A stretch of DNA of 64,000 bases from Methylobacterium sp. Lineage in GTDB: Bacteria > Pseudomonadota > Alphaproteobacteria > Rhizobiales > Beijerinckiaceae. The stretch lies in the NCBI GenBank assembly GCA_020253445.1, contig JADCBP010000001.1, positions 186,001-250,000 of the forward strand. Reading direction: 5' to 3'. Both the position numbers and the translations under genes were made by a program. The first letter of the stretch is position 1; each line of letters starts with the position of its first letter. Shown one piece after another: positions 35,988 through 53,989 of the stretch. Below the pieces are notes generated by a model that saw only the letters and a program-made list of their open reading frames with translations, was not told where the DNA came from and did not search any database.

Positions 35988-37235
35988 ATGCAGCGCTACT
36001 CGTTTTTCAGCCTCGCACGCAACGCGCTGTCGCAGCATGAAGGCTGGCAGCGTGCATGGCGCAGCCCGCCGCTGAAGAACGAGTACGATGTCGTCATCGT
36101 GGGGGCAGGCGGGCATGGGCTGTCCACGGCCTATCATCTCGCCAAGGAACACGGCGTCACAAACGTGGCGGTCATCGAGAAGGGCTGGCTCGGGGGCGGC
36201 AATACCGCCAGGAACACCCATACGATCCGCTCCAACTATCTGCGCGATGTCAGCATCCGTTTCCACGATGTCTCGGTGAAGCTCTATGAGCAGCTCTCGC
36301 GGGAGCTGAACTATAACATCCTGTTCAGCCAGCGCAGCATGATCGACCTGATCCAGAGCTGGGGCAAGCTGCGCGATCTGCGCCGGCGATCGTTGGCCAT
36401 GGCGCTGCATGGGCCAGATTATCAGTTGATCAGCGTCAACGACCTCCAGCGGCGGATTCCCGCCATGGGCGATCTGTCAGGCGTGCGCCTGCCGCCGCTT
36501 GCAGGCATGGTTCACCCCGATGGAGCAATGGCACGGCATGATGCTGTCGCGTGGTCCTATGCCCGGGCGGCTGATGCTCGTGGTGTGGAAATCCATCAGC
36601 ATACCGAGGTGACCGGGTTCACCTTCGCGGCCAACGGCGCAATCAGTGGTGTCGAAACCAATCGCGGTGTGGTGCGGGCGAGGAAGGTGGCGTTGGCCAC
36701 CGCAGGCAACACCAGCCACGTGATTGCCAGGGCGGGACTGAATCTGCCACTGGTCACCCGCAACCTTCAGGCCTTCGTTTCCGAACCCGTCAAGCCAATC
36801 ATCGATGTGATCGTCAACTGCCCGGACATCGGGCTGTATGTGATGCAGTCTGACAAGGGTGAGCTGGTCATCGGTGGCGGCACGGACCCGATCCCGTCCT
36901 ATCGTCAGGGCTGCCATTTTTCGACGTTCGAGGATGTGGTGGCGTCCCTTGTCGAGCTGTTCCCCCGCTTCAAGAACCTGAAGATGCTGCGCCAGTGGGG
37001 CGGTGCCATCGAGTTTGCCTATGATGCCAGCCCGATCATTTCAGCCACGAGCATTGCCGGTCTGCTGGTCAGCACGGGCTGGTATGGCGGATTCAAATCG
37101 ATCCCGGTTGGCGGTCTAACCTATGCTCATCTGATCGCGACTGGCCAGCCGCATTCCCTGGCGGAAGCTTTCGGCCTCGACCGGTTTACCGGTCTGAGGT
37201 TCCTGCTGGAGGCCGGTACCGTTGCGCAACGCTGA
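35988..37235 (+). CDS. soxB: Sarcosine oxidase beta subunit SoxB
   Basis: 415-residue flavin subunit of heterotetrameric sarcosine oxidase, which converts sarcosine to glycine, H2O2 and 5,10-methylene-THF. The N-terminus FFSLARNALSQHEGWQRAWR is typical. The FAD motif is VVIVGAGGHGLSTAYHLAKE, followed by GNTARNTHTIRSNYL. MARHDAVAWSYARAA contains the histidine that is the covalent FMN attachment site in the family. First gene of the soxBDAG operon, driven by the promoter at 35930-35966. Confidence 0.95.
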   Translation: MQRYSFFSLARNALSQHEGWQRAWRSPPLKNEYDVVIVGAGGHGLSTAYHLAKEHGVTNVAVIEKGWLGGGNTARNTHTIRSNYLRDVSIRFHDVSVKLYEQLSRELNYNILFSQRSMIDLIQSWGKLRDLRRRSLAMALHGPDYQLISVNDLQRRIPAMGDLSGVRLPPLAGMVHPDGAMARHDAVAWSYARAADARGVEIHQHTEVTGFTFAANGAISGVETNRGVVRARKVALATAGNTSHVIARAGLNLPLVTRNLQAFVSEPVKPIIDVIVNCPDIGLYVMQSDKGELVIGGGTDPIPSYRQGCHFSTFEDVVASLVELFPRFKNLKMLRQWGGAIEFAYDASPIISATSIAGLLVSTGWYGGFKSIPVGGLTYAHLIATGQPHSLAEAFGLDRFTGLRFLLEAGTVAQR

Positions 37236-37247
37236 GAGAACACCATC

Positions 37248-37514
37248 ATGCTGATGTTGACATGCCCATGGTGTGGCAGGCGCCCCGAAGGCGAGTTCGT
37301 CAATCTGGGCGAAGCCACGCGCCCTCGCCCGGTTGATCCAGCGGCGCTCACTGATGCCGAGTGGACGGCCTATATCTGCGACAGGCAAAACATCCGTGGC
37401 CGCCATAACGAGCGCTGGTGGCATGTGCGCGGATGCAATGTTGTTTTCGTGGTCGCGCGTGACACGGTCACGCATCAGGTTTTCGACACGGCGGCCGATG
37501 AGGCTGCGCCATGA
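37248..37514 (+). CDS. soxD: Sarcosine oxidase delta subunit SoxD
   Basis: 88-residue zinc-binding small subunit. The N-terminal CPWCGRRPEGEF provides the first cysteine pair; the histidine and cysteine of WWHVRGCNVVFVVARDT complete the site typical of SoxD. The middle segment PAALTDAEWTAYICDRQNIR matches the family pattern. It overlaps soxA by 4 bases (ATGA), so the two are translationally coupled. Confidence 0.93.
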   Translation: MLMLTCPWCGRRPEGEFVNLGEATRPRPVDPAALTDAEWTAYICDRQNIRGRHNERWWHVRGCNVVFVVARDTVTHQVFDTAADEAAP

Positions 37515-40444
37515 CGGCATCGCGTCTGGCAGAGGGCGGCGCGATCGACCGCACGAAGCCCATCTCTTTCAGCTTTGATGGCATGTCGCTGAGCGGCTTT
37601 GCCGGGGACACGCTGGCGTCAGCCCTGCTGGCCAATGACGTGATGGTGGTTGGACGAAGCTTCAAGCTGCACCGGCCACGCGGGCTGTTCGGGGCTGGCT
37701 ATGATGATCCCGGCAGCATGGTTGAGCGGCTCGGCCCGCGGCCCGCCACGAACCAGCTCGCGACAACCACCACACTCGATAACCATGGCGTCTATCGCAG
37801 TGTCGGCACATGGCCGAATGCGCGCCGCGATCTGGGAGCCGTGGCGCAGTTGTTCTCGCGGTTTCTGCCGGCAGGCTTTTACTACAAGACTTTCATGTGG
37901 CCCACATGGCACCTGTTCGAGCCATTCATCCGCGGCGCCGCCGGTCTTGGCCGTGTGCCTGGCGCAGATGTCTGGGAGCCCGTCAGCGAGAGCCGGTTCG
38001 GCGCCTGCGATGTGATGGTGATTGGCGCGGGGCCGGCAGGGCTCGGCGCCGCGCTTGTGGCGGGACGATCGGGCGCCAGCGTGATCCTCGTCGATGATGG
38101 CAGCGCACCTGGCGGGCGCCTGAGCGGCGATGGTGGCGACCCGCAGGGCTGGGCAGAAAGGAGCTGGCAGGAACTCGGCGCGATGCCCAATGTGCGGCTT
38201 CTGCCAAACTCGACCGCCTGGGGTTATCATGAGCATCACCTGATCACGGTGCTGGAGCGTGACCCGCGCGATGCGGCCGGGCTTGATCTGCGCAACTGGA
38301 AGATCAGGGCAGCTGAGGTCATTGTTGCTGCCGGCGCGCTCGAACGGCCCATTCCGTTCGCCAATCATGACCGGCCCGGCGTGATGCTGGCATCGGCTGT
38401 CAGGACATGGCTTGGGCGTTTTGGTGTCCGGGCTGGGCAACGGGCCGTGGTCTTTGCGAACAATGTCTCGGCCTATGGAACTGCGCTTGCCCTGTCTCGG
38501 GCCGGCGCAGGGGTCACCGTCGTCGATGCAAGGGCGGAGCCGGAGGTTGAAGCCATCTCGGCACTGACAGCGGCCAATATTGGCCTCATTCGAGGCTCTC
38601 ATGTATGCAAGGCCTATGGCAGAGGCCGTGTCGAGGCTGTTGATGTGATCGACGGCAGAGGCCGTGTCAGTCGGCTTACGTGCGATCTTGTCGCGGTATC
38701 CGGCGGATGGAACCCGACCTTTCACATGGCATCCCAGACGCGCGAGGCTCGTTCGGTTTGGCATGAGGATCTGGCGACATTCGTGGCCGCCCACGGACCG
38801 GCAGGCTTCCGCCTTGCCGGGGCCGCCCGTGCTGAATTCGACCCGGCCGGATGTGCCATGGATGGCGCGCGGGCAGCCGCTGATGCGCTCGCAGTGCTCG
38901 GTCGCAAGGCACCGGCGCTTGAACAACCCGCACTGCTTGAGCCGTTCGTCACGCGGCGCGTCTCGCCCCTCTGGTTTGTGCCTCCACGCAAGAAGGGCGA
39001 GAAGGTATTTGTCGACTTTTCCGGCGATGTCACCACGGATGATGTTGGCCTTGCCCTGCGCGAAGGGTTCGATTCAATCGAGCTGCTGAAGCGCTACACC
39101 ACAGCGGGCATGGGCGTTGACCAAGGCAAATCAGGTCATGTCAATATCATCGGCATTGTCGGCGCGCTGACCGGAGCCACGACCCAAACTGTTGGCACCA
39201 CAACGTTCAGGCCACCCTTCGTGCCGGTCGAGTTTGGCGCGATTGCCGGCCAGCGCAACAAGGCACGGCTTTATCCCTGGCGGCACACGCCCCTCACGGA
39301 TTGGCACATCGCCCGTGGTGCGGTGATGTATGAAGCGGGACTGCGCTGGCAAAGGCCAGGCTACTATCCGTTGCCGGGCGAAGATTGGGCAAAGGCCGCT
39401 TCGCGCGAAGCGAAAGCCGTGCGCGAGACAGTTGGCGTCTACGATGGCACGCCGCTTGGCAAGTTCCAGCTGAAGGGGCCGGATGTGCCCAGGCTGCTCG
39501 ATCTTCTTTATATCAGCGATTTTGCCAGGCTTTCGCCACGCCGCGGCAAGTATGGCGTGATGCTGTCCGATGACGGGTTGATCATGGATGATGGCGTGGT
39601 CTTCCGGCTGAATGAACAGCAATGGCTGCTGCATTCCTCGACAGGTGCCGCCGACCGTGTCCATCAACACATCGAGCAGATCCTTCAAGTGCACCGGCCT
39701 GACTGGCAGTTGAGCCTGATACCTGTCACCTCGCAATGGGCAAACGCCACCTTGTGCGGGCCAATGGCGCGTCGGGTGCTGGAAGCGTTGCAGCCCGATT
39801 TTGATGTCTCGCGCGAAGCGCTGCCCTTCATGGGCATGACCGAGGGATTGATCGGCGACATTCCGGTGCGCGTTTTTCGCGTAAGCTGGACTGGTGAAGC
39901 CAGCTTCGAGCTCAACACGCCAGCGCGGCATGCCCTGGCTCTGTGGGAGCGGATCATGGCGGCAGGTCAACCATTCGGCATCACGCCGGTCGGTTCCGAG
40001 GCCAACCACATCTTGCGAGTCGAGGCCGGCTATATCTCGACCGGGCACGAGGTCGACGGCACCTCCGATGCGTTCGATCTGGGCCTTGGGCCACTGGTCT
40101 CGCGCACCAAGCCTGATTTCATTGGCAAGCGCTCAATGGAGTTACGCCGACTGGCGGATCCCCAGCGTTTCGAGCTGATCGGCCTGTTGCCCGTCGATCC
40201 CGCGAAACCTGTGCCTGAGGGCGCGCCACTGACGCCAAACGGCGACAAGGCAGATCAGGAAGGGTTCGTCTCAGCCTGCGTCATGAGTGTCGCACGGGGG
40301 CGCGTCATTGCACTCGGGTTGCTAAGGCATGGTCGCGCCCGCATCGGGCAAACCGTTCACGCGCGGGTTCGCAATGAAATCATCCCGATGACCGTGGTGC
40401 CTCCCGTTTTCCATGATGCTGACCGCGCGCGGGTAAAGTCATGA
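37511..40444 (+). CDS. soxA: Sarcosine oxidase alpha subunit SoxA
   Basis: 977 residues, the usual length. The N-terminal ferredoxin-like region is SFDGMSLSGFAGDTLASALL then GRSFKLHRPRGLFGAG. The NAD-binding Rossmann domain starts at VMVIGAGPAGLGAALVAGRS near residue 170. The C-terminal half (about 590-970) is a GcvT-like folate-binding domain, with AGLRWQRPGYYPLPGE and ANHILRVEAGYISTGHEVDG. The folate domain captures the methylene group released from sarcosine, linking this operon to the THF pool used by metF. Overlaps soxD and soxG by 4 bases each. Confidence 0.96.
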   Translation: MTASRLAEGGAIDRTKPISFSFDGMSLSGFAGDTLASALLANDVMVVGRSFKLHRPRGLFGAGYDDPGSMVERLGPRPATNQLATTTTLDNHGVYRSVGTWPNARRDLGAVAQLFSRFLPAGFYYKTFMWPTWHLFEPFIRGAAGLGRVPGADVWEPVSESRFGACDVMVIGAGPAGLGAALVAGRSGASVILVDDGSAPGGRLSGDGGDPQGWAERSWQELGAMPNVRLLPNSTAWGYHEHHLITVLERDPRDAAGLDLRNWKIRAAEVIVAAGALERPIPFANHDRPGVMLASAVRTWLGRFGVRAGQRAVVFANNVSAYGTALALSRAGAGVTVVDARAEPEVEAISALTAANIGLIRGSHVCKAYGRGRVEAVDVIDGRGRVSRLTCDLVAVSGGWNPTFHMASQTREARSVWHEDLATFVAAHGPAGFRLAGAARAEFDPAGCAMDGARAAADALAVLGRKAPALEQPALLEPFVTRRVSPLWFVPPRKKGEKVFVDFSGDVTTDDVGLALREGFDSIELLKRYTTAGMGVDQGKSGHVNIIGIVGALTGATTQTVGTTTFRPPFVPVEFGAIAGQRNKARLYPWRHTPLTDWHIARGAVMYEAGLRWQRPGYYPLPGEDWAKAASREAKAVRETVGVYDGTPLGKFQLKGPDVPRLLDLLYISDFARLSPRRGKYGVMLSDDGLIMDDGVVFRLNEQQWLLHSSTGAADRVHQHIEQILQVHRPDWQLSLIPVTSQWANATLCGPMARRVLEALQPDFDVSREALPFMGMTEGLIGDIPVRVFRVSWTGEASFELNTPARHALALWERIMAAGQPFGITPVGSEANHILRVEAGYISTGHEVDGTSDAFDLGLGPLVSRTKPDFIGKRSMELRRLADPQRFELIGLLPVDPAKPVPEGAPLTPNGDKADQEGFVSACVMSVARGRVIALGLLRHGRARIGQTVHARVRNEIIPMTVVPPVFHDADRARVKS

Positions 40445-41019
40445 GCCAGCGTTACCCTGCCCGGATCACGCGCCTTCCGATGCTTGCGCTCTTCGAGGCT
40501 CGCGGCAGCGAAGCCGGGCTTTTGGCGGCACTCGCGGCAGCAGGGTTGAATTTGCCGCCCGCGACAAAGAGCATTGCGGGGCAGGCCACTCGCCCTTGCG
40601 TTCTGCGTCTTGGTCCGCGCCGTGTCCTGATCATGGGTGAGGCTGGCGAGGAGGCTGCGCTCGGGGAAGCGCTTGATGGAGCCTTTGCGAAGGTGCCCGG
40701 CGCCGATTTTGCGCTTGTATCCGACATGTTCGCGGCCTTCGAGCTGAGCGGCAAAGGTTCCGCAGACATTCTCGCGCAGGGCTTGCCGCTGGATCTTTCG
40801 GAGGCCGCCATGCCTGCCGGGTCTGCCACGGGAACCGAGCTATGGGGGACAACCGTTATCATCATCCGGTCCGAAGTCCCGCAGCCGGGCTTCCGGATCA
40901 TCGTCGACCGCTCCTATGCGGGCTTCATCGAGGACTGGCTGACGGTAGCCTCGGGCGGCACATCGGCCCTGAGGCCAGGCGTCATGATCGCCCCGCCGCG
41001 ATCATGGAAACCGTCATGA
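40441..41019 (+). CDS. soxG: Sarcosine oxidase gamma subunit SoxG
   Basis: 192-residue GcvT-related gamma subunit with no known catalytic residues. Recognisable family patterns are RPCVLRLGPRRVLIMGEAG, FALVSDMFAAFELSGKGSAD and the C-terminal GFRIIVDRSYAGFIEDWLT. Its start overlaps the soxA stop (ATGA). Last gene of the operon; it converges on the GST gene 19 bases away. Confidence 0.9.
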   Translation: MSQRYPARITRLPMLALFEARGSEAGLLAALAAAGLNLPPATKSIAGQATRPCVLRLGPRRVLIMGEAGEEAALGEALDGAFAKVPGADFALVSDMFAAFELSGKGSADILAQGLPLDLSEAAMPAGSATGTELWGTTVIIIRSEVPQPGFRIIVDRSYAGFIEDWLTVASGGTSALRPGVMIAPPRSWKPS

Positions 41020-41038
41020 TCGCCAACCCTGCGGCCGG

Positions 41039-41698
41039 TCAGTCTGCGGGAGCAGTCTTGGCCGCGACCCAGGCCGCAAGAAGCGGGCGGTAGGCGCCAA
41101 TTTCCGATGCCACGCGCGGATCGGCAGTCATCGCCGCAACCATTCGCGCCATGCGCGCGCCGGGCATGGCGGCGAGTGCAAGGGGCCGTCGCAAGGCATC
41201 AAGCCAGCACAGACCGGCGAAAAGTCCGCAATCCGCCATCCCGGGCTTTTCGCCCAGCATGAAAGGTCCGGCCTCGTCCATGGCACTTTCGATCAGGACC
41301 AGACTCTCCATGATCCGCTTGTCCGCCGAGGCCACGATTTCCGGTTTGCGACCAACGGGTGCCACATGTCCGAACAGGCTGCGGATGGCCGCTTCGAGTC
41401 TGAGGTCGACCCAGCGCGAGAGCATCCGCATTCGGGCGCGCGCCTTCAGGTCGGATGGAAAAAGCGCTGTGCCCAGGCGGCGATCTTCGAGATACTCGAT
41501 GATGCTGTCGGTTTCGGTGAGCATCAGGTCATCATCGATCAGTGCCGGAATGGTGCCGGCCGGATTGATCGCGAGATTGTCCGGCGAGCGATAGCTTCCG
41601 CCGGGCGGGTCACGGAGTTCGATATCGAGGCCTTTGAGTTTCAGCGCCAACCTGAGTTTGAAGCTGTAGAGCGAGATGGGCAGTTGATAGATGTGCAT
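41039..41698 (-). CDS. Glutathione S-transferase family protein
   Basis: 219 residues from ATG 41698, preceded by GGAG and CAGGG. The N-terminal thioredoxin-like half contains LPISLYSFKLRLALKLKGLD (catalytic Ser/Tyr region), the cis-proline in NPAGTIPALID and the glutathione-binding LTETDSIIEYL. The C-terminal half is helical. It resembles bacterial zeta/theta-like enzymes (isomerases or hydrolytic GSTs). It diverges from the creatininase-family gene across a 74-base region, so it may be co-controlled. A role in handling a reactive intermediate or formaldehyde is possible but unproven. Confidence 0.88.
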   Translation of the reverse strand: MHIYQLPISLYSFKLRLALKLKGLDIELRDPPGGSYRSPDNLAINPAGTIPALIDDDLMLTETDSIIEYLEDRRLGTALFPSDLKARARMRMLSRWVDLRLEAAIRSLFGHVAPVGRKPEIVASADKRIMESLVLIESAMDEAGPFMLGEKPGMADCGLFAGLCWLDALRRPLALAAMPGARMARMVAAMTADPRVASEIGAYRPLLAAWVAAKTAPAD

Positions 41699-41772
41699 GT
41701 AACCCTGCTCCGGTTCGACTCCTGCATCTGCGCAGAATAGCCTTACGCGGCAACGAAAGGATACCACCTCGG

Positions 41773-42543
41773 ATGCGACTTGAACTGATGACCTCACCCG
41801 CGGTCGAGGCCTATCTCCGAACCAAGCCGGGCATCGTGATACCGGTGGGAGCGACAGAGCAGCACGGGCCGGACGGCTTGATCGGGACGGATCATCTCTG
41901 TGCGGAAGCCATCGCGCGCCGCTTCGGTGAGGCCCATGGCGTCGTGGTCGCGCCGACGATCGCCTACGGCATGTCGCAATTTCATCTGGGTTTCGCCGGC
42001 ACGATCACGCTCAGGCCGTCGACATTGATCGCGATGGTGCACGACATCATTGCTTCGCTGGCCGCAACAGGCTTCACCCGCCTGTATATCCTCAACGGTC
42101 ATGGCGGCAATCTGGCTCCTGTCCGTTCGGCTGTTCAGGAATTCTACGCAGCGCTGTCACTGGCGGGCGGCAAGGTGCCAAGCCCTGTGCATTGTCGCCT
42201 GAAGAGCTGGTGGGAAATGCCGTCGGCCGATGCGCTTCGCAAGACGCTTTATGGCGAGCAGGAGGGGTATCACGCGACACCGTCGGAGGTGGCCATCACC
42301 ATGGCATCCCATCCGGATCACATCACGCCGTTCGAGCGTCCAGCTCCAAGGCAGCCAAGCCATGATGGGCTGCTTCATGCCGGCGACAACTACTACGACG
42401 CTGCCGATTACAAGGCGCGTTATCCCGATGGCCGCGTGATCTCGCATTCGGCGCTGGCAACATGCGAAGCCGGTGAAAAACTGATTGGCCTCGCCGCGGA
42501 TGATCTGGCGCGTGACTTCGCGATGTTCTGCGCCGCAACCTGA
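41773..42543 (+). CDS. Creatininase-family amidohydrolase
   Basis: 256-residue cytoplasmic metal enzyme of the creatininase fold. Metal ligands are seen at PVGATEQHGPDG (E29, H31), D40 in IGTDHLCAE, the histidine of LYILNGHGGN, and the glutamate of ATPSEVAITMA. The family hydrolyses small cyclic or linear amides: creatinine, formamidopyrimidines (ArfB-like), mycofactocin peptide (MftE). Proximity to sarcosine oxidase would fit creatinine breakdown, but no creatinase (M24-type) gene is present, so another cyclic amide is equally likely. It converges on an ABC permease gene 9 bases away. Confidence 0.87.
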   Translation: MRLELMTSPAVEAYLRTKPGIVIPVGATEQHGPDGLIGTDHLCAEAIARRFGEAHGVVVAPTIAYGMSQFHLGFAGTITLRPSTLIAMVHDIIASLAATGFTRLYILNGHGGNLAPVRSAVQEFYAALSLAGGKVPSPVHCRLKSWWEMPSADALRKTLYGEQEGYHATPSEVAITMASHPDHITPFERPAPRQPSHDGLLHAGDNYYDAADYKARYPDGRVISHSALATCEAGEKLIGLAADDLARDFAMFCAAT

Positions 42544-42552
42544 GAGCGAAAC

Positions 42553-43323
42553 TCAATGCCCGCGGTCACTGGCTCCCATGTGCCGCTCAAGGCGACGCAC
42601 CAGCCATGAGACGGCGAGGATGAGCAGCAGATATTCCAGCACCAGCAACGTGTAGATTTCGAGCGGGCGATACTCGACCAGCGTCAGTTCATTGGCCCGC
42701 CTTGTCAGTTCCTGATAGCCGATGACCGAAATCAGCGATGACATCTTGAGCACGTAGACAAACTGGTTGCCGAGCGCCGGCAAGATGCGGCGGATGGCTT
42801 GCGGCAAAACGATGAAGCGCATCACCTGCCATGAGGTCAGCCCAATGCTGCGCCCGGCTTCCCACTGGCCTTTCGGAATTGACTGAATGCCGGCCCGGAA
42901 GATTTCCGCCTCGAAGGCCGAGTCGGACAAGGCAAGTGAGATCACACCGGCTGCGAACACCCCAAACTGGATGCCGGCAACCACTGGCAGGCCGTAATAG
43001 ACCCAAAGCAGCAGAACCAGCAGTGGCACCGAGCGAAACGTCTCGACATATACCTGGTTGAACCCGCGCAGGGCTTTCTGCCTTGACAGTGCAGCCAACG
43101 CCACCGCGATCCCGACCAGGACCGAAATGACGATCGAAATGATCGAAATCGATAACGTCGCCCAGATGCCGGAGGTGAGGAACAAAAGGTTGTTCCGCCC
43201 GCGCGCATCGAACGGCGAGATGACGTGCCAGCCCCAGGTATAGGTCGAACTGGTGCAACCGCTGAGGGCGAGAGCCACTGCGGCAAGCACAAGGAATCTT
43301 GCCACGAGGGGGCTGGTGACCAT
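42553..43323 (-). CDS. Polar amino-acid ABC transporter permease with lipobox-like N-terminus
   Basis: 256-residue HisM/GlnP-type permease. The core has LTSGIWATLSISIISIVISV, VETFRSVPLLVLLLWVYYGL, then the EAA-type coupling loop SIPKGQWEAGRSIGLTSWQV with VLPQAIRRILPALGNQF. The N-terminus is unusual: VLAAVALALSGCTSS resembles a lipoprotein signal with cysteine at about 23. It lies 10 bases after the binding-protein gene of the same operon. No ATPase belongs to this operon; the one at 52243 is the nearest. Confidence 0.88.
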   Translation of the reverse strand: MVTSPLVARFLVLAAVALALSGCTSSTYTWGWHVISPFDARGRNNLLFLTSGIWATLSISIISIVISVLVGIAVALAALSRQKALRGFNQVYVETFRSVPLLVLLLWVYYGLPVVAGIQFGVFAAGVISLALSDSAFEAEIFRAGIQSIPKGQWEAGRSIGLTSWQVMRFIVLPQAIRRILPALGNQFVYVLKMSSLISVIGYQELTRRANELTLVEYRPLEIYTLLVLEYLLLILAVSWLVRRLERHMGASDRGH

Positions 43324-43333
43324 GGTGATGCAA

Positions 43334-46279: not shown

Positions 46280-46374
46280 CTGATCTGCTCGAATGAGATC
46301 GGGTGCTCTGTCTCTTGGTATTGTCGCATTTTCGTCACGCGAACCGGAGCCCGCTTCGCTTGAAAATGCTCTAG
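46280..46374. repeat. Dispersed palindromic repeat, copy D
   Basis: Single unit in the opposite orientation to copies A-C: a GAATGAGATCGG-containing tail at about 46290-46302, then GCATTTTC (46326-46333), GCGAACCGGAGCCCGC, and GAAAATGC (46362-46369). It occupies the region between the divergent M29-like and Rieske genes, ending about 18 bases before the Rieske start, and so lies within the probable promoter zone. Confidence 0.8.
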
Positions 46375-46392
46375 AAAGTTTGGGGAAGGCGC

Positions 46393-47427
46393 ATGTTTCT
46401 GAGAGACTGCTGGTATGTTGCAGGCTGGACACACGAGATCACCCAGCAGCTGAAGGCCGTCCGCATCCTTGGCGAAGACATTGTGATGTATCGGACAGCA
46501 GCGGGCGAAATCGCGGCACTTCAAGATGCCTGCCCGCACCGCAAGCTGCCCCTCTCAAAGGGGACGCTGAAGGAAGACCGCATCATCTGCGGCTATCATG
46601 GGTTGACCTTCGACCAGCGTGGCGCCTGCGTGGCTGCACCGACGCAAGGGCGGATACCAACTGGCGCGGCGGTGAGGCGCTATCCGGTGAAGGACCGATA
46701 TGGTTTTGCCTGGATCTGGATGGGGGCACCCGAAAAGGCCGATGAAAGCCTGATTATCGATATCCCCGACTATGACAACCCGTCCTGGGGCCGGACCAAG
46801 GGCGGCGACATGACCATCGCCTGCAACTACCTCTACATTGTCGATAACCTGCTGGACCCCTCGCATGTCGCCTGGGTGCATCTGACGTCATTTGCTGGAG
46901 CAAAGACCGACGACACGCCGCTCTCCATCGATGTCAACACGGACGGCGTGGTTGTCTGGCGCTGGATGATGGATACCGAAGCGCCGCCCTATTATGCGCC
47001 GTTACTCAAGTTCAGTGGCAATGTCGATCGCAAGCAGCATTATGAGTGCGTCTTGCCGTCGATTGGCATCAACAAATCCATCTTCTCGCCGGCCGGCCAT
47101 GGCGGACCTGACAAGCCCTTCCATGAGAAGACCTATATCAACATCTCCTACAACTTCATGACGCCCATCGATGAGGATAACAGCCACTACTTCTGGTTCC
47201 AGCATCGCAACACCGACCCTGATGACGAGTCGATTTCGGAGAAGATGAACGCCGGGGCCAGGACAGCCTTTATCGAAGATCGCGATGTTCTGGTGGCTGT
47301 TCACAACGGCATGGCCAACCGGAAAACACCCCATCTCGATCTGGCGCTGGACGCGGGCGCGCTGCGCTTTCGCAAACTGCTTCAAACCCGGATGACCGCT
47401 GAAGCGGCATCAGACAAGGCAGCATGA
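46393..47427 (+). CDS. Rieske non-heme iron oxygenase, VanA-type (predicted N- or O-demethylase)
   Basis: 344 residues. The Rieske domain has CPHRKLPLSKG and CGYHGLTFD (C-x-H, 16 residues, C-x2-H). The catalytic domain has the mononuclear iron motif DNLLDPSHVAWVH with two histidines. Length and motifs match the VanA group, which includes vanillate and dicamba O-demethylases and the caffeine N-demethylases. It is followed after 1 base by a matching reductase gene. In a cluster with sarcosine oxidase and amino-acid-type transporters, N-demethylation releasing formaldehyde is the favoured reaction; substrate unknown. ATG 46393 is preceded by GGGGAA. Confidence 0.9.
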   Translation: MFLRDCWYVAGWTHEITQQLKAVRILGEDIVMYRTAAGEIAALQDACPHRKLPLSKGTLKEDRIICGYHGLTFDQRGACVAAPTQGRIPTGAAVRRYPVKDRYGFAWIWMGAPEKADESLIIDIPDYDNPSWGRTKGGDMTIACNYLYIVDNLLDPSHVAWVHLTSFAGAKTDDTPLSIDVNTDGVVVWRWMMDTEAPPYYAPLLKFSGNVDRKQHYECVLPSIGINKSIFSPAGHGGPDKPFHEKTYINISYNFMTPIDEDNSHYFWFQHRNTDPDDESISEKMNAGARTAFIEDRDVLVAVHNGMANRKTPHLDLALDAGALRFRKLLQTRMTAEAASDKAA

Positions 47428-47428
47428 C

Positions 47429-48535
47429 GTGGGCCAGTTGGGAACGGCCTGGCGACGTTACAAGGTTATCGGCCGCAAGATGGAAAGCGAGGTGGTGTGC
47501 TCGCTGCATCTGGCGGCAGATGATGGCGGCCCGTTGCCGCCCTTTGCCGCCGGTCAGTTCCTGACATTTCGGTTGTCCGGTCCGGATGGCAGGCCAATAC
47601 CGCGCAACTACAGCCTGTCATCCGACCCATCCGACCTCTCGGCCTATCGCATCAGCGTCAAGCGCGAACCCCCGCCACCGGGCAGGCCTGATCTGCCGCC
47701 GGGCTTTGGTTCGGGCTTCATGCATGATGAGGTCCAGATCGGCACAATCCTCCAAGGATCAGCGCCCAAAGGGCAGTTCCAGCTCGATGAAGCTTCGCAG
47801 CGCCCTGTGCTGTTGCTGGCTGGTGGTATTGGCATCACCCCCCTGTTGGCCATGGCGCATGTGCTCGCGCGCTCATCTCGAAGGACATATCTGATCCATG
47901 CCTGCGAGAACGGTCGGGTTCAGCCTTTTTCGGGCGAATTGGCCGAGTTGGCGGTGCGGTGTCCCAATCTGACCGTTGCGACCTGCCTGCGAGAACCCGG
48001 TGCACGGGACCATGCCTTGGCCCATCATCATTTCGATGGAGTGGTGACGGCCGACATATTGCGGAAGGTCCTGCCGATCGGGAACTACGATGCCTATCTG
48101 TGCGGACCCGCCGGTTTCATGCAGGCGATGTATGGTCTCCTGCTCGATCTTGGCCTCCGCGAAGAACAGATCCGTTACGAATTCTTCGGCCCATCGACGG
48201 TGCTGAAACAGCACCCGCCGGATGCTCTTGCGACCCGGCCGGCTGTGATGCCCCGGACGGAGGCCACCCAAGCGAGGGGCACTGCAATCAGCGTCACTTT
48301 CTCGCGCTCTGGGATTTCCGTGCCTTGGGACGGCAGTTCTCGAACCTTGCTCGATCTTGCCGAAGCGAACGGATTGGCTCCCGCATTTTCCTGCCGCAAC
48401 GGTATCTGCAACACCTGTCTGTGCGAGGTCGAAGGCGAGGTCGCCTATCTCGAGGAGCCGCTCGATGAACCAGGCCCGGGAATGGCTCTGATCTGCTGCA
48501 GCGTGCCGAAATCGCCGCTGGTCATCGGGATCTGA
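47429..48535 (+). CDS. Ferredoxin-NAD(P)H reductase partner of the Rieske oxygenase
   Basis: 368 residues, GTG start one base after the oxygenase stop. Order: flavin barrel (PRNYSLSSDPSDLSAYRISV), NAD domain (LLLAGGIGITPLLAM; YLCGPAGFMQAMY) and a C-terminal plant-type 2Fe-2S ferredoxin with cysteines in FSCRNGICNTCLCEVEG and LICCS. The architecture matches GbcB/CntB/StcE-like reductases that feed electrons to demethylating Rieske enzymes, rather than the VanB order being decisive. Coupled expression with the oxygenase is certain from the spacing. Confidence 0.9.
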   Translation: MGQLGTAWRRYKVIGRKMESEVVCSLHLAADDGGPLPPFAAGQFLTFRLSGPDGRPIPRNYSLSSDPSDLSAYRISVKREPPPPGRPDLPPGFGSGFMHDEVQIGTILQGSAPKGQFQLDEASQRPVLLLAGGIGITPLLAMAHVLARSSRRTYLIHACENGRVQPFSGELAELAVRCPNLTVATCLREPGARDHALAHHHFDGVVTADILRKVLPIGNYDAYLCGPAGFMQAMYGLLLDLGLREEQIRYEFFGPSTVLKQHPPDALATRPAVMPRTEATQARGTAISVTFSRSGISVPWDGSSRTLLDLAEANGLAPAFSCRNGICNTCLCEVEGEVAYLEEPLDEPGPGMALICCSVPKSPLVIGI

Positions 48536-48559
48536 TGGCAAGATGATGGGAGAAAGCGA

Positions 48560-49399
48560 ATGAGCGATTATTCCATCATGCCTGCCCCCTCCGCCCGGAT
48601 GCGCCGCAAGGCAAAGGCACGCCATGCCGCCCTCATTGACATTGCCTCGTTCATCCTGTTCGTCGCGGCGCTTGCCTGGCTGATCCTGCGCGGTGCCCAG
48701 AGCATGGGCTATAACTGGCAGTGGTTCCGCGTTCCTCGCTATCTCTGGCGCATGATCGACGGCCAATTGATCTGGGGCCCGCTGATGAAGGGCCTGTTCG
48801 TTACCTTGCAGATTTCAGCGATCGCGATGGTTCTGGCTTTGGCCATCGGCCTTTTGACGGCCCTCCTTCGGCTATCGCCAAGCCTTGTCGGACGGGGCAT
48901 CGCGAGGGCTTATCTTGAAATCATCCGCAACACGCCTCTGCTTGTTCAGGTGCTGGTGTTCTATTTCATCATCGCACAGATCCTCGGGATCTCGCGATTC
49001 TGGGCCGGCGTGCTCTGTTTGGCTATTTACGAAGGCGCATTTGCCGCCGAGATCATCCGGGGCGGCATCATCGCGGTCAAGCGCGGCCAATGGGAGGCGG
49101 GGCGAGCACTCGGCCTCAAGCCTTTCGACCTATACCGTGACGTGGTCCTGCCTCAGGCTGTCCCGCTGATGTTGCCGCCGCTGGCGGGGGTGCTGGTCAA
49201 CCTTGTCAAGCACTCCGCCATCGTCAGCGTGATTGCCGTGTTCGATCTGACCACCGAGGGACGCACGATTGTGGCCGACACGTTCATGGCTTTCGAAATC
49301 TGGTTGACGGTCGCGGGGCTTTATCTCGTGATCACTTTGTCGCTGTCGCTTCTGGTGCTGGGCCTTGAGCGAAGGTTTGGACGATCCCGGCATGCCTGA
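48560..49399 (+). CDS. Polar amino-acid ABC transporter permease 1
   Basis: 279 residues, ATG preceded by GGGAG. After a hydrophilic N-terminus come TM segments (IASFILFVAALAWLILRGA; FVTLQISAIAMVLALAIGLL), AYLEIIRNTPLLVQVLVFYF and the coupling loop AVKRGQWEAGRALGLKPFDL with VLPQAVPLMLPPLAGVLVNL. HisM/GlnP type. It follows the reductase gene by 24 bases and is probably cotranscribed with the Rieske pair. Confidence 0.92.
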   Translation: MSDYSIMPAPSARMRRKAKARHAALIDIASFILFVAALAWLILRGAQSMGYNWQWFRVPRYLWRMIDGQLIWGPLMKGLFVTLQISAIAMVLALAIGLLTALLRLSPSLVGRGIARAYLEIIRNTPLLVQVLVFYFIIAQILGISRFWAGVLCLAIYEGAFAAEIIRGGIIAVKRGQWEAGRALGLKPFDLYRDVVLPQAVPLMLPPLAGVLVNLVKHSAIVSVIAVFDLTTEGRTIVADTFMAFEIWLTVAGLYLVITLSLSLLVLGLERRFGRSRHA

Positions 49400-49453
49400 T
49401 GGCGCAACCCTTGCCTTGATCCTTGACGAAAACGACACATAGGGGAGATCAAC

Positions 49454-50293: not shown

Positions 50294-50313
50294 GATCTGG
50301 CGAAGCCGCACGC

Positions 50314-51231
50314 ATGTCTCTGGACGCGCCTGCACGTCTGCCACCTCAGCGCCGCAAGGGTCTCAGCTTCGGCTGGCTCGATGCGGTGCTGCTGGCTTGC
50401 GTGCTCGGTGCTGCGGGTTACTTCATCTGGCGCACCCAGACTGTGCTCTATTACAAATGGGACTGGAGCACGGTCTGGCCCTGGATCCTCCGGGTCGACC
50501 CGAAGACGGGCGGCTGGGTTCCAAACGCGATTCTGCTGGGGCTTGCCACCACCTTGCGGCTTGCCATCTGGGGCATCCTGCTGGCCGCGATCATCGGTGC
50601 CATCATGGGCTGGGCGCGTACCAGCAAGCGCCTTCTGCCACGGCTGATCAGCACGAGCTACGTGATGCTGATCCGCAATATTCCGCCCATCGTCTTCGTC
50701 TTTGTCTTCGTGTTCTTCATTACGAGCCAGATCCTTCCATCGCTGGGCATTGCGGACCGCGCGGCCCGACTTTCGCCTGACATGCGCTGGTGGCTCTCTG
50801 TGCTGTTCGGGCCGATCAGCCGCATCGAGAACTTCCTTGTTGGCCTCATCTGTCTCAGCGTGTTCACCGGTGCATATGTCACGGAAATCGTCCGGGCCGG
50901 CATCGAGTCGGTGCCGCGATCCCAGATCGAAGCCGGCAACAGCCTTGGTTTGTCGCGCTTCGATGTGTTGCGCGATGTGGTTTTCCCACAAGCCCTGCGC
51001 AATGTCATTCCGCCCATGTCCAACCAGTTCATCCAGATGATCAAGGATTCGTCTCTGGTGTCGCTGGTTTCGGTCCAGGAACTGACCTTCGTGGCTCAGG
51101 ATATCCAGATATCGACCCAGCGGGTGTTCGAGGTCCTGCTGTTTGTCGGTTTGCTCTATTTCATGATCTGCTGGAGCCTGTCGCTGATTTTCGGGCGGCT
51201 GGAGCGCGATGCGACACGGGTCAGGGGCTGA
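50314..51231 (+). CDS. Polar amino-acid ABC transporter permease 2
   Basis: 305 residues, GTG/ATG region start at 50314 (MSLDAPARLPPQRRKG). Membrane segments include VLLACVLGAAGYFIW and LATTLRLAIWGILLAAIIGA; SYVMLIRNIPPIVFVFVFVF, then the coupling loop SVPRSQIEAGNSLGLSRFDV with VFPQALRNVIPPMSNQF. Longer than permease 1 because of an additional periplasmic segment. Together with permease 1 and the ATPase at 52243 it forms a complete importer. The deacylase gene starts 2 bases after its stop. Confidence 0.92.
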   Translation: MSLDAPARLPPQRRKGLSFGWLDAVLLACVLGAAGYFIWRTQTVLYYKWDWSTVWPWILRVDPKTGGWVPNAILLGLATTLRLAIWGILLAAIIGAIMGWARTSKRLLPRLISTSYVMLIRNIPPIVFVFVFVFFITSQILPSLGIADRAARLSPDMRWWLSVLFGPISRIENFLVGLICLSVFTGAYVTEIVRAGIESVPRSQIEAGNSLGLSRFDVLRDVVFPQALRNVIPPMSNQFIQMIKDSSLVSLVSVQELTFVAQDIQISTQRVFEVLLFVGLLYFMICWSLSLIFGRLERDATRVRG

Positions 51232-51232
51232 T

Positions 51233-52246
51233 ATGGCAGGCGCGGCGCTGACGGCCAGCATCGATCTCGAAGCGCCGGGGAAACGCATCGGTTACCTGCG
51301 CCTCCCCTGGTCAGACGAGATCCATGCCTATGGCGTGATCCCCGTGCCGATTGCCGTGATCCGAGGTGGCGACGGGCCGGCCGCGCTGATCACGGCCGGC
51401 ATTCATGGCGACGAGTATGAAGGGCTCCTGATTGCCCGCAGGCTGATCGCAGAGCTTGACCACACGGAGGTACCGGGTCGCCTGATCATCATGCCGGGTG
51501 TGAACTGGCCCGCTGTCGAAGGCCGGACGCGAACATCACCGATCGATCAAAAGAACATGAACCGGGCATTTCCCGGTGATCCGTCTTCTGGACCGACCGC
51601 CATGATCGCCAATTTCATCGAGCGCATCATCCTGCCGCATGTCGGCTTTGCAATTGATCTTCATTCCGGCGGCACAAAGTCGATCTACACCCCGTGCGGT
51701 TATGTCTATGGCATGGGCGAGACGTCTTTCCGCGCCCGTAAACTTGCTGCTGCGCACGCCTTCGGCGCGCCCATCACGGCCGTTGTCATGGCAACATCGT
51801 CGGGCGGTTCCCTCTCGTCGGCGTGCGAGCGGCACAATGTCGTCATGGTCGCAACCGAACTTGGCGGAGGAGCCAGGGTTGATCAGGACGCATTGCGCAT
51901 CGGTTGGGATGGGACAATCAATCTCTTGCGGCATGCCGGCATTCTGGCTGGATCAAGCCTGCAAAAGCGCACGGCGCTGCATCACACCGCATCGGCTGAA
52001 GCCTTCGTCATGGCGCCGATTGACGGGCTGTTTGAGGCCTGTGTCCCTCTTGACCAGACCGTGACACATGGCGATCTGGCAGGACGCATCTGGCCTATGG
52101 ATGACCTGTCCCGCCAACCTGTTGCCGTGCACTTTGGAGCCTCCGGCAAGGTCTTGTGCCATCGCACCATGCCGATGGTGCGTCGTGGCGATTATCTTTG
52201 CCACACGGGTCATCCCATCACAGACAAGGAATTCATGGACCTATGA
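51233..52246 (+). CDS. Succinylglutamate desuccinylase/aspartoacylase-family deacylase (DoeB-like)
   Basis: 337 residues from ATG 51233. Zinc carboxypeptidase-like fold: ALITAGIHGDEYEGLLIAR (H and E ligands), MPGVNWPAVEGRTRTSP, NMNRAFPGD, then FAIDLHSGGTKSIYTPCGYV (third ligand) and the C-terminal glutamate region VATELGGGARVDQDAL. It is close to the N-acetyl-diaminobutyrate deacetylase DoeB of ectoine catabolism, but no doeA, doeC or doeD is present. It would remove an acyl group from an imported N-acylated amino compound. Embedded in the transport operon and overlapping the ATPase gene by 4 bases. Confidence 0.86.
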   Translation: MAGAALTASIDLEAPGKRIGYLRLPWSDEIHAYGVIPVPIAVIRGGDGPAALITAGIHGDEYEGLLIARRLIAELDHTEVPGRLIIMPGVNWPAVEGRTRTSPIDQKNMNRAFPGDPSSGPTAMIANFIERIILPHVGFAIDLHSGGTKSIYTPCGYVYGMGETSFRARKLAAAHAFGAPITAVVMATSSGGSLSSACERHNVVMVATELGGGARVDQDALRIGWDGTINLLRHAGILAGSSLQKRTALHHTASAEAFVMAPIDGLFEACVPLDQTVTHGDLAGRIWPMDDLSRQPVAVHFGASGKVLCHRTMPMVRRGDYLCHTGHPITDKEFMDL

Positions 52247-52992
52247 CGTCCGATAAGCCGACGATGATCACGCTCAGGGGTGTCAACAAGTGGTTTGGCG
52301 CCTTCCATGTGCTGAAGGACATTGATCTTGAGGTGCGGCTTGGCCAGCGCGTCGTGGTCTGCGGCCCCTCGGGATCGGGCAAGTCTACCCTGATCCGCTG
52401 CATCAACCGGCTGGAAGAGCACGACGAAGGCGAGATCATCGTGGACGGCATCATTCTTGACGAAGACATGCGCAATGTCGCGGCCATCCGCCGCGAAGTC
52501 GGCATGGTCTTCCAGCAGTTCAATCTCTTTCCGCACCTTTCGGTGCTCGATAACTGCGTGCTGGCCCAGCGCCGGGCGCGCGGCACCCCGAAGGCCGAAG
52601 CACGGGAGCGGGCGATGCATTATCTGGAGCGGGTACGTATCCCCGAACAGGCAGCCAAGTATCCGGCCCAGCTTTCCGGTGGCCAGCAGCAGCGCGTCGC
52701 CATCGCCCGCTCGCTTTGCATGGAGCCCAAGGTCATGTTGTTCGACGAACCAACCTCGGCGCTTGATCCGGAAATGATCAAAGAGGTGCTCGATGTGATG
52801 ATCGATCTCGCACAATCGGGCATGACCATGATCTGCGTCACGCACGAGATGGGCTTCGCCCGCAAGGTAGCCGACCAGATGGTGTTCATGGACCATGGTC
52901 GCATCGTCGAGACCTCTCCGCCGGAGCGGTTTTTTGCGAGCCCTGAATCAGAGAGAACCCGGCTGTTCCTGAGCCAGATCCTGTCTCATTGA
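52243..52992 (+). CDS. Polar amino-acid ABC transporter ATP-binding protein (GlnQ/HisP type)
   Basis: 249 residues. Walker [19 protein letters not shown]-loop [16 protein letters not shown], signature [16 protein letters not shown], Walker [16 protein letters not shown] and H-loop [14 protein letters not shown] are all complete. It is the only ATPase of this class in the window and probably serves the permeases at 48560 and 50314; it may also serve the orphan permease at 42553. Last gene of the plus-strand operon that starts with the Rieske oxygenase. Confidence 0.95.
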
Positions 52993-52996
52993 CCTT

Positions 52997-53989
52997 TCAG
53001 CGCGAAAGCTGATCCAGAATCCGGCGAGCCGTTCCGTGCAGGATCAGGTTCCTGTCTGCTTCGCTGAGGTTGGCGGCCATGACGGTGTCGCGCACCTGAT
53101 GGGGCATGAAAATAGGATAGTCGGTCCCCATCATGATCCTGTCTGCGCCGAAGACGTCTACGGCCAACTCGAGCGCGCGCGGGCCGAGAGAGGCGCAATC
53201 ATAGACCATTCCGCGCAAGCTTTGGCGGGGAAAAGCCTCGTATGGCGGGCGGGATAGCGCGACCGCTTCAAGCCGTTCAAGCACGAAGGGCAGCGTGCCG
53301 CCGAGGTTGACCAACTGAAACGTGATCCGCGGATAGGCCTCCGCCAGACCGCCCGACAAGACGGTCATGGCCATCTGCGACAACGATGCCTGCAGGTTGA
53401 GAACCGAAGCCCGGTAGACGGATGTATCTGCATAAGGCTCCGGAGGGCTCTCACCAACCATCAGGCCCGGATGGATCATCACAATTGCGCCCGCCATGTT
53501 GGCGGCTTCGAGCACCGGCGCAAGCCTCCTCGCGCCATCGATGGTGAGAAAGTAGTTTCCCGGCAGGATTGCGCCGACAAGCCCGAGATCGCTTCGCAGA
53601 CGGAGCATTTCTGCTGTTGCACGCGCGATATCGGCCAAGGGCAAGCCGCCGAGCCCAATGAAACGACCCTGTGATGCCTGCGTTATCGCCGCCAGATGGT
53701 CATTGTATTGCGCAATTGCCTTTCCGACCTCGTCCACCGGCATGACGTCAACACCCAGCGCGCCGGGAAAAGTAAGCAGCTGGGTCCCGATTCCGTGAGC
53801 ATCCATGTAGGCAAGTCGGGCGTTCAGACTGGTGTAGTCATCCGACATCACGGTGGAGGCTGTCATGGCATTCAGGACCATACGCCCTTCAGCATTGCGG
53901 CTGACGTTTGGGCGTGCTGTGCGCAACTCGAGCTCCTCCACGAGGCCGCCATAATAATGTGAATGCATGTCGATTGCGGTTGATGTCAT
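52997..53989 (-). CDS. ACMSD-type amidohydrolase (amidohydrolase_2 family)
   Basis: 330 residues with the metal signature of the ACMSD/LigW group: IDMHSHYYG (H-x-H), VMIHPGLM (histidine) and IMMGTDYPIF (aspartate). Members are non-oxidative decarboxylases or hydrolases acting on ring or ring-cleavage products. It converges on the ATPase gene with only 4 bases between stops, and its own promoter lies in the repeat-rich region towards 54 kb. Its role beside the transport/oxygenase operon is presumed, not shown. Confidence 0.85.
   Translation of the reverse strand: MTSTAIDMHSHYYGGLVEELELRTARPNVSRNAEGRMVLNAMTASTVMSDDYTSLNARLAYMDAHGIGTQLLTFPGALGVDVMPVDEVGKAIAQYNDHLAAITQASQGRFIGLGGLPLADIARATAEMLRLRSDLGLVGAILPGNYFLTIDGARRLAPVLEAANMAGAIVMIHPGLMVGESPPEPYADTSVYRASVLNLQASLSQMAMTVLSGGLAEAYPRITFQLVNLGGTLPFVLERLEAVALSRPPYEAFPRQSLRGMVYDCASLGPRALELAVDVFGADRIMMGTDYPIFMPHQVRDTVMAANLSEADRNLILHGTARRILDQLSR

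What the first reader, a model, noticed from the sequence alone, without database searches (positions are those of the whole stretch)
35988..53989. An 18-kb accessory cluster that looks like an uncharacterised catabolic pathway for an N-methylated nitrogen compound
Seen: soxBDAG, a creatininase-family amidohydrolase, a GST, an M29/NicX-like protein, a VanA-type Rieske oxygenase plus reductase, a DoeB-like deacylase, an ACMSD-type amidohydrolase, polar amino-acid ABC transport genes and two dedicated regulators, all packed together. Known: VanA-type Rieske enzymes often demethylate; sarcosine oxidase finishes N-methylglycine breakdown. Inferred: import, deacylation, N-demethylation, amide or ring hydrolysis to sarcosine or a relative, then glycine, with formaldehyde and formate drained through folate and the formate dehydrogenase at 28.9-33.4 kb. 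This combination does not match complete creatinine, ectoine, betaine or nicotinate pathways that I know.
Basis: partly seen in the sequence, partly recalled or inferred. Interest (0 to 1): 0.78.

Follow-up and report, generated by a model that had tools for sequence, protein, structure and literature searches.

The report
Conserved modular N-methyl compound degradation cluster
This bacterium carries an 18-kb set of genes that recurs, in shuffled versions, across many marine and freshwater relatives and most likely breaks down a small methylated, amino-acid-like ring compound (perhaps a methylated histidine) through an enzyme family that the searched protein-family libraries do not name.

Summary
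In detail: 19 genes lie at 34,980-53,989, with the substitution pattern of working genes. A NicX-fold 'M29-like' protein (44,955-46,124), unmatched in Pfam and NCBIfam, anchors related clusters in Alphaproteobacteria. In 107 such loci a VanA-type Rieske oxygenase is in 75, a 2OG-Fe(II) oxygenase in 11, both in none, neither in 21. ABC importers and creatininase-like, DoeB-like, GST and Sox-like genes recur as modules.

The interpretation needs correcting. The 'soxBDAG' is probably not sarcosine oxidase: it scores below both family cut-offs and forms its own clade, and a second locus scores well above them. So 'sarcosine, then glycine' is not supported. Histidine-utilisation genes lie within about 10 kb in 12 of 107 loci, in several arrangements, so a methylated histidine derivative is my leading but weak guess; only 1 of those 12 has the Sox-like genes. 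An N-methylpyridinium acid is the rival; a 2026 homarine paper was not available. The cluster lies in a variable region; one congener has 2.6 kb where this genome has 31 kb. Substrate and step order are inferred.

The parts
34980..35891 (-). LysR-type regulator divergent from the sox-like operon
   Evidence: PF03466/PF00126; in 67 long loci a relative is present in 8, of which 7 also have soxA
35988..37235 (+). soxB-like flavin oxidase beta subunit, M29-linked clade
   Evidence: TIGR01373 512.2 bits vs cut-off 529.45; a conserved GW..GF/YK loop is one residue shorter in 11 of 11 M29-linked rows aligned, 0 of 10 others
37248..37514 (+). soxD-like subunit (88 aa)
   Evidence: position; tblastn conservation with soxB/soxA; not scanned against Pfam
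37511..40444 (+). soxA-like subunit with Fer2_4, SO_alpha_A3 and folate-binding GCV_T domains
   Evidence: Pfam; TIGR01372 1039.8 vs cut-off 1164; own clade of 27 rows
40441..41019 (+). soxG-like subunit
   Evidence: position and tblastn homology; not scanned against Pfam
41039..41698 (-). glutathione S-transferase-like protein
   Evidence: PF13417; in 67 long loci all 13 GST-bearing ones also carry the creatininase-like gene
41773..42543 (+). creatininase-family amidohydrolase
   Evidence: PF02633 209.8 bits; below TIGR04448 cut-off; nearest PDB 3no4
42553..43323 (-). ABC permease 1
   Evidence: PF00528
43334..44146 (-). periplasmic binding protein 1
   Evidence: PF00497; nearest PDB 5kkw, deposited as cyclohexadienyl dehydratase
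44262..44882 (-). XRE-type regulator
   Evidence: weak HTH matches; relatives annotated XRE in plasmid records; present in 44 of 107 loci
44955..46124 (-). M29-like NicX-fold protein, anchor of the cluster
   Evidence: no Pfam/NCBIfam match; AF2 pLDDT 89.7; Foldseek best 7cn3; H276, H308, H310 in 30 of 30 rows
46393..47427 (+). VanA-type Rieske oxygenase
   Evidence: PF19112 150.1 bits, PF00355 78.7 bits; nearest PDB 7qwt and DdmC
47429..48535 (+). FAD/NAD/2Fe-2S reductase, presumed partner of the Rieske
   Evidence: PF00175, PF00111, PF00970; a relative in 8 of 99 loci
48560..49399 (+). ABC permease 2
   Evidence: PF00528
49454..50293 (+). periplasmic binding protein 2
   Evidence: PF00497; nearest PDB 9e2b
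50314..51231 (+). ABC permease 3
   Evidence: PF00528
51209..52246 (+). DoeB-like AstE/AspA-family deacylase
   Evidence: PF24827 118.5 bits; TIGR02994 247.7 vs 402.7; nearest PDB 3cdx, then DoeB 6twl
52243..52992 (+). ABC ATPase
   Evidence: PF00005
52997..53989 (-). ACMSD/decarboxylase-type amidohydrolase
   Evidence: PF04909 84.6 bits; nearest PDB 2dvt and ACMSD
54413..54487 (-). tRNA-Met at the right edge of the variable region
   Evidence: ARAGORN; in congener G082 a similar sequence lies there in inverted orientation, in G287 none was aligned

Best explanation
This is an accessory, probably horizontally acquired, catabolic cluster for a small N-methylated, amino-acid-like ring compound. 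Inferred order: two amino-acid-type ABC importers bring it in. The Rieske oxygenase with its reductase hydroxylates or demethylates it; some other lineages carry a 2OG-Fe(II) oxygenase instead. The NicX-fold M29-like metalloenzyme then acts on the oxidised ring. The creatininase-like or DoeB-like hydrolase, with the GST and the amidohydrolase, opens and trims the amide or formamide products. The Sox-like oxidase then removes the last N-methyl group to 5,10-methylene-folate, releasing an ordinary amino acid. My leading guess for the substrate is a methylated histidine derivative whose product enters the hut pathway, which this genome has on another contig. Shown: gene content, selection pattern, co-conservation, predicted fold, Sox clade, hut proximity in other genomes. 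Inferred: chemistry, order and substrate.
For: Co-conservation: in 107 loci holding the M29-like gene, Rieske 75, 2OG oxygenase 11, both 0; sbp2 51, XRE 44, sbp1 39, creatininase-like 33, soxA 30, DoeB-like 20, GST 19, amidohydrolase 14. The Paracoccus seriniphilus plasmid has DoeB-like, RidA, ferredoxin, ABC set, Rieske, LysR, M29-like, GST, soxBDAG and purU in one stretch. Modules: creatininase-like with sbp1, Fisher p 1.7e-11; DoeB-like with sbp2, p 1e-3; sbp1 against sbp2, p 2e-4, 8 of 67 with both (67 long loci, relatedness ignored). Sox-like identity. Fold; conserved H276, H308-x-H310. hut genes in the same stretch in 12 of 107 loci, in different gene orders in Rhodobacterales loci, L159/L160 and L163; on the M29 tree of the 85 loci of at least 15 kb, 9 of them with hut, at least 6 changes, against 7-9 (mean 8.6) in 100 shuffles. 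A complete hut set elsewhere in the window's genome. Mobility: 0 of 11 other same-genus or same-family genomes listed carry the M29-like gene; same-genus G287 has 2.6 kb where the window has 31 kb. Selection pattern.
Against: No substrate has been tested. hut proximity is found in only 12 of 107 loci; hut is not near the window's cluster; and of those 12 loci 6 have the Rieske and only 1 the Sox-like genes, so the window's full set is never seen beside hut. A putative pyridinium-type operon adjoins the cluster in Leisingera, with parts in Marivita, which pulls the substrate guess another way. If the product is simply histidine, the invariant M29-like enzyme and the hydrolases have no clear role. 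Sox-like genes are in only 30 of 107 loci. 21 of 107 loci (14 of the 85 of at least 15 kb) have neither Rieske nor the 2OG oxygenase at my thresholds, some because a gene is truncated. Frequent partners elsewhere, AhpD-like (56 of 107) and FA-desaturase-like (47 of 107), are absent from the window. One soxA inside an M29 locus (L022) groups with the sarcosine-type copies.
Confidence: 0.4

Rival explanations
1. The cluster degrades an N-methylpyridinium acid such as homarine or trigonelline. The Rieske hydroxylates the ring, the NicX-fold protein cleaves it, the hydrolases remove formyl or amide groups, and the Sox-like enzyme oxidises N-methylglutamate to glutamate. It may be, or be a branch of, the published homarine route.
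For: NicX is the best fold match. The gene kinds parallel nicotinate degradation (recalled). Most of the 80 genome-collection loci are from records titled as Rhodobacteraceae or other Rhodobacterales genera. A 2026 paper states that Mgd takes part in homarine catabolism (PMC13390433, passages only). RidA-like genes are in 14 of 99 loci. One M29 locus (L135) has an mgs-like gene nearby.
Against: The homarine paper itself is not held, so its genes could not be compared. The Leisingera neighbour operon (GntR, amino-acid-synthesis family, hydrolase, flavin reductase, LLM oxygenase, aldehyde dehydrogenase) looks more like a two-component ring-opening route, and its LLM gene has no match in the window's genome (the tool notes that an empty answer proves little). 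The cluster's soxA does not group with the gmaS/mgs-linked Aminobacter copy. The hut link is unexplained.
Confidence: 0.23
2. The cluster holds two or more unrelated functions: a sox-like amine oxidase operon and an amino-acid-type import operon with a Rieske oxygenase, collected in an island.
For: The region is variable and beside a tRNA. sbp1 and sbp2 modules are anti-correlated across loci, and soxA is anti-correlated with sbp1 (p 0.002) and creatininase-like (p 0.03). Sox-like genes are absent from most loci.
Against: The same gene families reassemble around the M29-like gene in several lineages of Alphaproteobacteria with different gene orders. The sox-like genes of M29 loci form one clade, L022 excepted.
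Confidence: 0.19
3. A betaine pathway (hercynine or another quaternary amine): the oxygenase and the Sox-like enzyme strip N-methyl groups one after another, with no ring cleavage.
For: Trimethylamine-methyltransferase-family and FAD oxidoreductase genes adjoin some copies. The soxA-like subunit has a folate domain.
Against: The nearest solved Rieske relatives are dicamba, saxitoxin-type, methylxanthine, carbazole and ketosteroid enzymes, all ring compounds; carnitine monooxygenase is only a weak hit (E 3e-4). The invariant M29-like protein is left without a role. MttB-like genes matched in only 3 of 99 loci.
Confidence: 0.12

Closest known systems
NicX, 2,5-dihydroxypyridine 5,6-dioxygenase (nicotinate degradation)
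   Same: Best fold match of the M29-like protein; setting of oxygenase, hydrolases and GST resembles the nic order of events (recalled)
   Different: 15% identity; no sequence-family match; the His-x-Asp motif appears to read His-x-His here, in 30 of 30 rows (NicX ligands recalled)
M29 aminopeptidases (PepS, AmpS, AmpT)
   Same: Same fold class (TM 0.41-0.48); histidine spacing 32 here against 33 in an M29 peptidase from a related genome
   Different: PF02073 finds nothing in this genome; HxH in place of HxD
Heterotetrameric sarcosine oxidase (SoxBDAG)
   Same: Four-gene order, folate domain, 2gag relative
   Different: Below both TIGR cut-offs, separate clade, loop one residue shorter; a second copy well above the cut-offs exists in the genome
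N-methylglutamate dehydrogenase (MgdABCD)
   Same: Same architecture; a copy beside gmaS/mgs was used as reference
   Different: Not in that clade; no good gmaS in the genome
VanA-type Rieske demethylases (vanillate, dicamba, guaiacol, caffeine; substrates partly recalled)
   Same: PF19112 plus PF00355; PDB relatives DdmC, 7qwt, NdmA
   Different: Linked to amino-acid importers and the M29-like family
DoeB, ectoine degradation
   Same: AstE/AspA family; DoeB is the only NCBIfam model hit; PDB 6twl
   Different: Far below the DoeB cut-off; no other doe gene recognised among the 19

Membership tests
Sarcosine oxidase SoxBDAG | Curated family score (TIGR01373, TIGR01372) | tested here: not met
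   512.2 < 529.45 and 1039.8 < 1164; second genomic copy 721 and 1480.1, both over
Sarcosine oxidase SoxBDAG | Groups with sarcosine-type copies | tested here: not met
   Separate 27-row clade, SH-aLRT 100 (quick tree, long branches flagged by the tool)
Sarcosine oxidase SoxBDAG | Activity on sarcosine | not testable with these tools
   needs enzyme assay
N-methylglutamate dehydrogenase | Linked to gmaS/mgs and grouping with such copies | tested here: not met
   Best gmaS match 41% over 263 of 447 aa; not in the clade of the Aminobacter copy
NicX | Fold | tested here: met
   7cn3_A E 5.8e-15, probability 1.00, TM 0.59/0.64 on a predicted model
NicX | 2-His-1-Asp iron site | tested here: inconclusive
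   Three invariant His (H276, H308, H310) with HxH for HxD; no residue-level structural alignment was possible
M29 peptidase (PF02073) | Pfam family match | tested here: not met
   No match in the window's genome or for 34 members at E<=5
VanA-type Rieske oxygenase | VanA_C plus Rieske domains above gathering score | tested here: met
   150.1 and 78.7 bits
VanA-type Rieske oxygenase | Demethylating activity | not testable with these tools
   needs enzyme assay
Creatininase (creatinine amidohydrolase) | Equivalog score TIGR04448 | tested here: not met
   96.7 < 235
DoeB | Equivalog score TIGR02994 | tested here: not met
   247.7 < 402.7
Homarine pathway (2026 paper) | Orthology to the published genes | not tested
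   paper not held

The most novel reading that the evidence does not exclude
An undescribed alphaproteobacterial pathway for methylated histidine derivatives, anchored by an unnamed NicX-fold enzyme family with a three-histidine metal site, fed by interchangeable oxygenases (Rieske or 2OG-Fe(II)), finished by a new class of heterotetrameric N-methyl amino acid oxidase, and funnelled into histidine utilisation.
Probability: 0.2. Interest if true: 0.75.

Novelty: new variant of a known kind. Interest (0 to 1): 0.5.

Why it matters
The cluster recurs in Ruegeria, Leisingera, Marivita, Boseongicola MAGs and several Hyphomicrobiales, many of them marine bacteria that are known to live on algal small molecules, so its substrate is probably a common dissolved nitrogen compound. 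It gives a conserved protein family with no name in the libraries searched and a set of genes that can be knocked out in culturable strains. It also warns that 'soxBDAG' annotation does not always mean sarcosine.

Tried and rejected
Sarcosine oxidase and N-methylglutamate dehydrogenase were considered for the sox-like operon and set aside. A direct homarine-operon assignment was considered; the decisive paper could not be read and only a citing passage was seen. Passages of two other papers on homarine in diatom cultures were seen and gave no gene information. M29 peptidase membership was rejected. Profile comparison of the M29-like family with four M29 peptidases gave only a 16-column match at probability 0.3%, which was not relied on. 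The first scan of the XRE gene used a wrong frame (44143-44958) and found nothing; the right frame was scanned later. A repeat of the tRNA's island-facing end was sought in the window: 14 bases of it occur only once, and no 14-base direct match links 54301-54560 with 27001-46500. Sequence searches of the M29-like family against the PDB found no real relative: eight jacalin-type chance hits at E 0.57 or worse, and none for the profile. Paper searches for homarine with operon, N-methylglutamate or Rieske, homarine catabolism, M29 family with Rieske and Ruegeria, N-methylhistidine or hercynine with Rieske, SAR11 binding proteins, ergothioneine with hercynine and urocanate, methylhistidine demethylase, and dihydroxypyridine dioxygenase with Rieske and sarcosine oxidase listed no paper that, from its title and the start of its abstract, describes this cluster. 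Those are listings of open-licence papers only and do not show that none exists.

Rows left out of counts: the 'distant M29' loci (L088, L089, L140, L141, L164, L165) were not in the 99- and 107-locus tables. Duplicate or closely related genomes were not removed. The 80 loci are the best of 102. Presence was called by tblastn at thresholds I set per gene. Fisher tests ignore relatedness. In one search only 11 M29-linked soxB rows were aligned, the window's included; 25 ORFs had been collected from the loci.
Full report
What is there. The window (C1:186001-250000 of a 3.28-Mb, 18-contig genome) holds 19 genes from 34,980 to 53,989 that match the finding. On the plus strand: soxB/D/A/G-like genes (35,988-41,019), a creatininase-family gene (41,773-42,543), and a run of Rieske, reductase, permease, binding protein, permease, DoeB-like and ATPase genes (46,393-52,992). 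On the minus strand: LysR, GST, then permease, binding protein, XRE regulator and the M29-like gene (42,553-46,124), and an ACMSD-type amidohydrolase at the right end. Against the nearest relative found (L002, 93-99% protein identity) all 19 genes align without stops in the aligned part, and third-position differences outnumber those at position 1 or 2 in each; the same holds against L004, at 61-93% identity, where the LysR gene is cut short. This is the pattern of working genes.

Is it one unit? The M29-like protein was used as bait. Of 254 candidate stretches in the genome collection, 102 encoded a relative and the best 80 were kept. Their neighbourhoods repeatedly hold the window's other genes. 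With annotated plasmids and loci from order-, class- and phylum-wide samples the table reached 107 loci. Rieske is in 75, 2OG-Fe(II) oxygenase in 11, both in 0; AhpD-like in 56, sbp2 in 51, FA-desaturase-like in 47, XRE in 44, sbp1 in 39, creatininase-like in 33, soxA in 30, DoeB-like in 20, GST in 19, amidohydrolase in 14. 21 of 107 have neither oxygenase (14 of the 85 loci of at least 15 kb), in some because a gene is truncated. AhpD-like and FA-desaturase-like genes, common elsewhere, are not in the window. The clearest named copy is on a Paracoccus seriniphilus plasmid: DoeB-like, RidA, ferredoxin, four ABC genes, AhpD-like, Rieske, LysR, M29-like, GST, soxBDAG and purU in one stretch. In the 67 loci of at least 19 kb of the earlier 99-locus table the creatininase-like gene goes with sbp1 (20 of 21), the DoeB-like gene with sbp2 (13 of 13), and sbp1 and sbp2 are anti-correlated (8 have both). 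Creatininase-like and DoeB-like genes tested directly against each other show no association either way (p = 1); both occur together in only 4 of 107 loci (L002, L004, L130, L131), all laid out like the window. soxA is anti-correlated with sbp1 (p 0.002). The window therefore combines two import-and-hydrolysis modules around one Rieske/M29-like core. Relatedness was not corrected for in these p-values; on the M29 tree of 85 loci the Rieske/2OG state changes at least 11 times and sox presence at least 12 times.

The anchor protein. No Pfam or NCBIfam model recognises it, nor any of 34 aligned members in Pfam at E up to 5 beyond single chance hits; PDB sequence searches found no real relative. 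The predicted structure is good (pLDDT 89.7) and its best fold match is NicX, 2,5-dihydroxypyridine dioxygenase (E 5.8e-15), ahead of M29 aminopeptidases. Across 30 diverse rows H276, H308 and H310 are invariant. M29 peptidases from related genomes show His, about 33 residues, then His-x-Asp; here it is His, 32 residues, His-x-His. That these are metal ligands is recalled for the known enzymes and inferred here. In samples it was found only in Alphaproteobacteria: 17 of 297 genomes of the order, 10 of 385 of the class, and 4 of 398 of the phylum, all four in the same class; each count includes the window's own genome.

The sox-like oxidase. Both large subunits fall under the sarcosine-oxidase cut-offs. 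A second copy on contig 11, beside a GbdR-like regulator and a catalase-peroxidase, is well over them. In a 39-row tree the window's soxA sits in a 27-row clade (SH-aLRT 100) made only of copies from M29 loci, apart from the contig-11 copy and from the Aminobacter copy next to gmaS/mgs (a quick tree, long branches flagged by the tool). One soxA from an M29 locus, L022, and the two copies of the distant-M29 type lie outside it. In soxB a conserved GW..GF/YK loop is one residue shorter in 11 of 11 M29-linked rows aligned and 0 of 10 others. So the enzyme probably oxidises an N-methyl compound other than sarcosine; activity was not testable here.

Substrate. hut genes (at least two of HutH, HutI, HutU, HutF) lie in the same stretch, within about 10 kb, in 12 of 107 loci, in different arrangements: M29 between hutC and hutF in L024, L053 and L070, beside hutC in L031, on the hutH side in L159 and L160, next to hutU in L163. 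On the tree of the 85 longer loci (9 with hut) at least 6 changes are needed, against 7-9 in 100 shuffles. A random 7-kb operon within 10 kb of a gene in a 4-Mb genome is expected in under 1% of loci (my estimate). The window's genome has a complete hut set on contig 14. HisC-like transaminase genes with two-subunit decarboxylase genes adjoin four loci fully and one partly. These point to a histidine-like compound, weakly: of the 12 hut loci only 6 have the Rieske and 1 the Sox-like genes. Also against it, a GntR-led operon with an LLM oxygenase, flavin reductase, hydrolase and aldehyde dehydrogenase adjoins the cluster in the one Leisingera record read, with parts of it in four Marivita loci, which fits an N-methylpyridinium acid. 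A 2026 study of homarine catabolism is cited as involving Mgd (PMC13390433, passages), but that study is not held. Both readings stay open.

Origin. G+C is 0.585-0.606 across 42-54 kb and 0.623-0.634 over the sox part, against 0.597-0.682 in the rest of the window. 0 of the 11 other same-genus or same-family genomes listed in the order sample carry the M29-like gene, although L002, nearly identical over the cluster, is probably a close relative too. In same-genus G287 the flanks matching window 23.6 and 54.7 kb lie 2.6 kb apart and no tRNA-Met was aligned between them; in G082 about 14.6 kb lies between the left flank and a tRNA-Met-like sequence in inverted orientation. The cluster sits in a variable region; no integrase-type repeat was found. 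Transfer is inferred from this patchy distribution.

Verdict. The sarcosine ending is not supported, and the substrate is unresolved. It is a new variant of a known kind of catabolic island, built around a protein family that the searched libraries do not name.

Noticed in passing
window 34843-34904, 46270-46380, 54074-54290, 19056-19242: A dispersed intergenic repeat (about 60-215 nt, with an 83-nt tandem at 54112-54277); parts of it also occur in other pieces of the same genome (L103, L104, L169).
   Followed up: partly
window 23571-54706: Variable region: 31 kb here, 2.6 kb in same-genus G287 (L176), about 14.6 kb of other DNA in G082 (L175), next to tRNA-Met.
   Followed up: partly
L084:10004-15621; L064, L065, L071, L073: An operon of GntR, amino-acid-synthesis family, alpha/beta hydrolase, flavin reductase, LLM oxygenase and aldehyde dehydrogenase beside the M29 cluster in Leisingera, with parts of it in Marivita loci; candidate N-methylpyridinium route.
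   Followed up: partly
L088, L089, L140, L141, L164, L165: A distant M29-like branch; three of these loci (L088, L089, L140) have their own sox-like genes, GST and an AhpD-like gene nearby.
   Followed up: partly
L010, L075, L127, L163 (L134 in part): HisC-like aminotransferase with a two-subunit TPP decarboxylase (sulfopyruvate/phosphonopyruvate decarboxylase-like) next to the cluster.
   Followed up: no
L036:11119-12474 and relatives: Fatty-acid-desaturase-like protein paired with a Rieske ferredoxin in 35 of 36 long loci that have either; it weakly matches the amino-acid hydroxylase model GntB.
   Followed up: no
L135 (G078): An M29-like gene with amidotransferase, FAD oxidoreductase, a distant glutamine-synthetase-like gene (29% to gmaS) and an mgs-like gene (54%) nearby, hinting at gamma-glutamyl or N-methylglutamate chemistry.
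   Followed up: no
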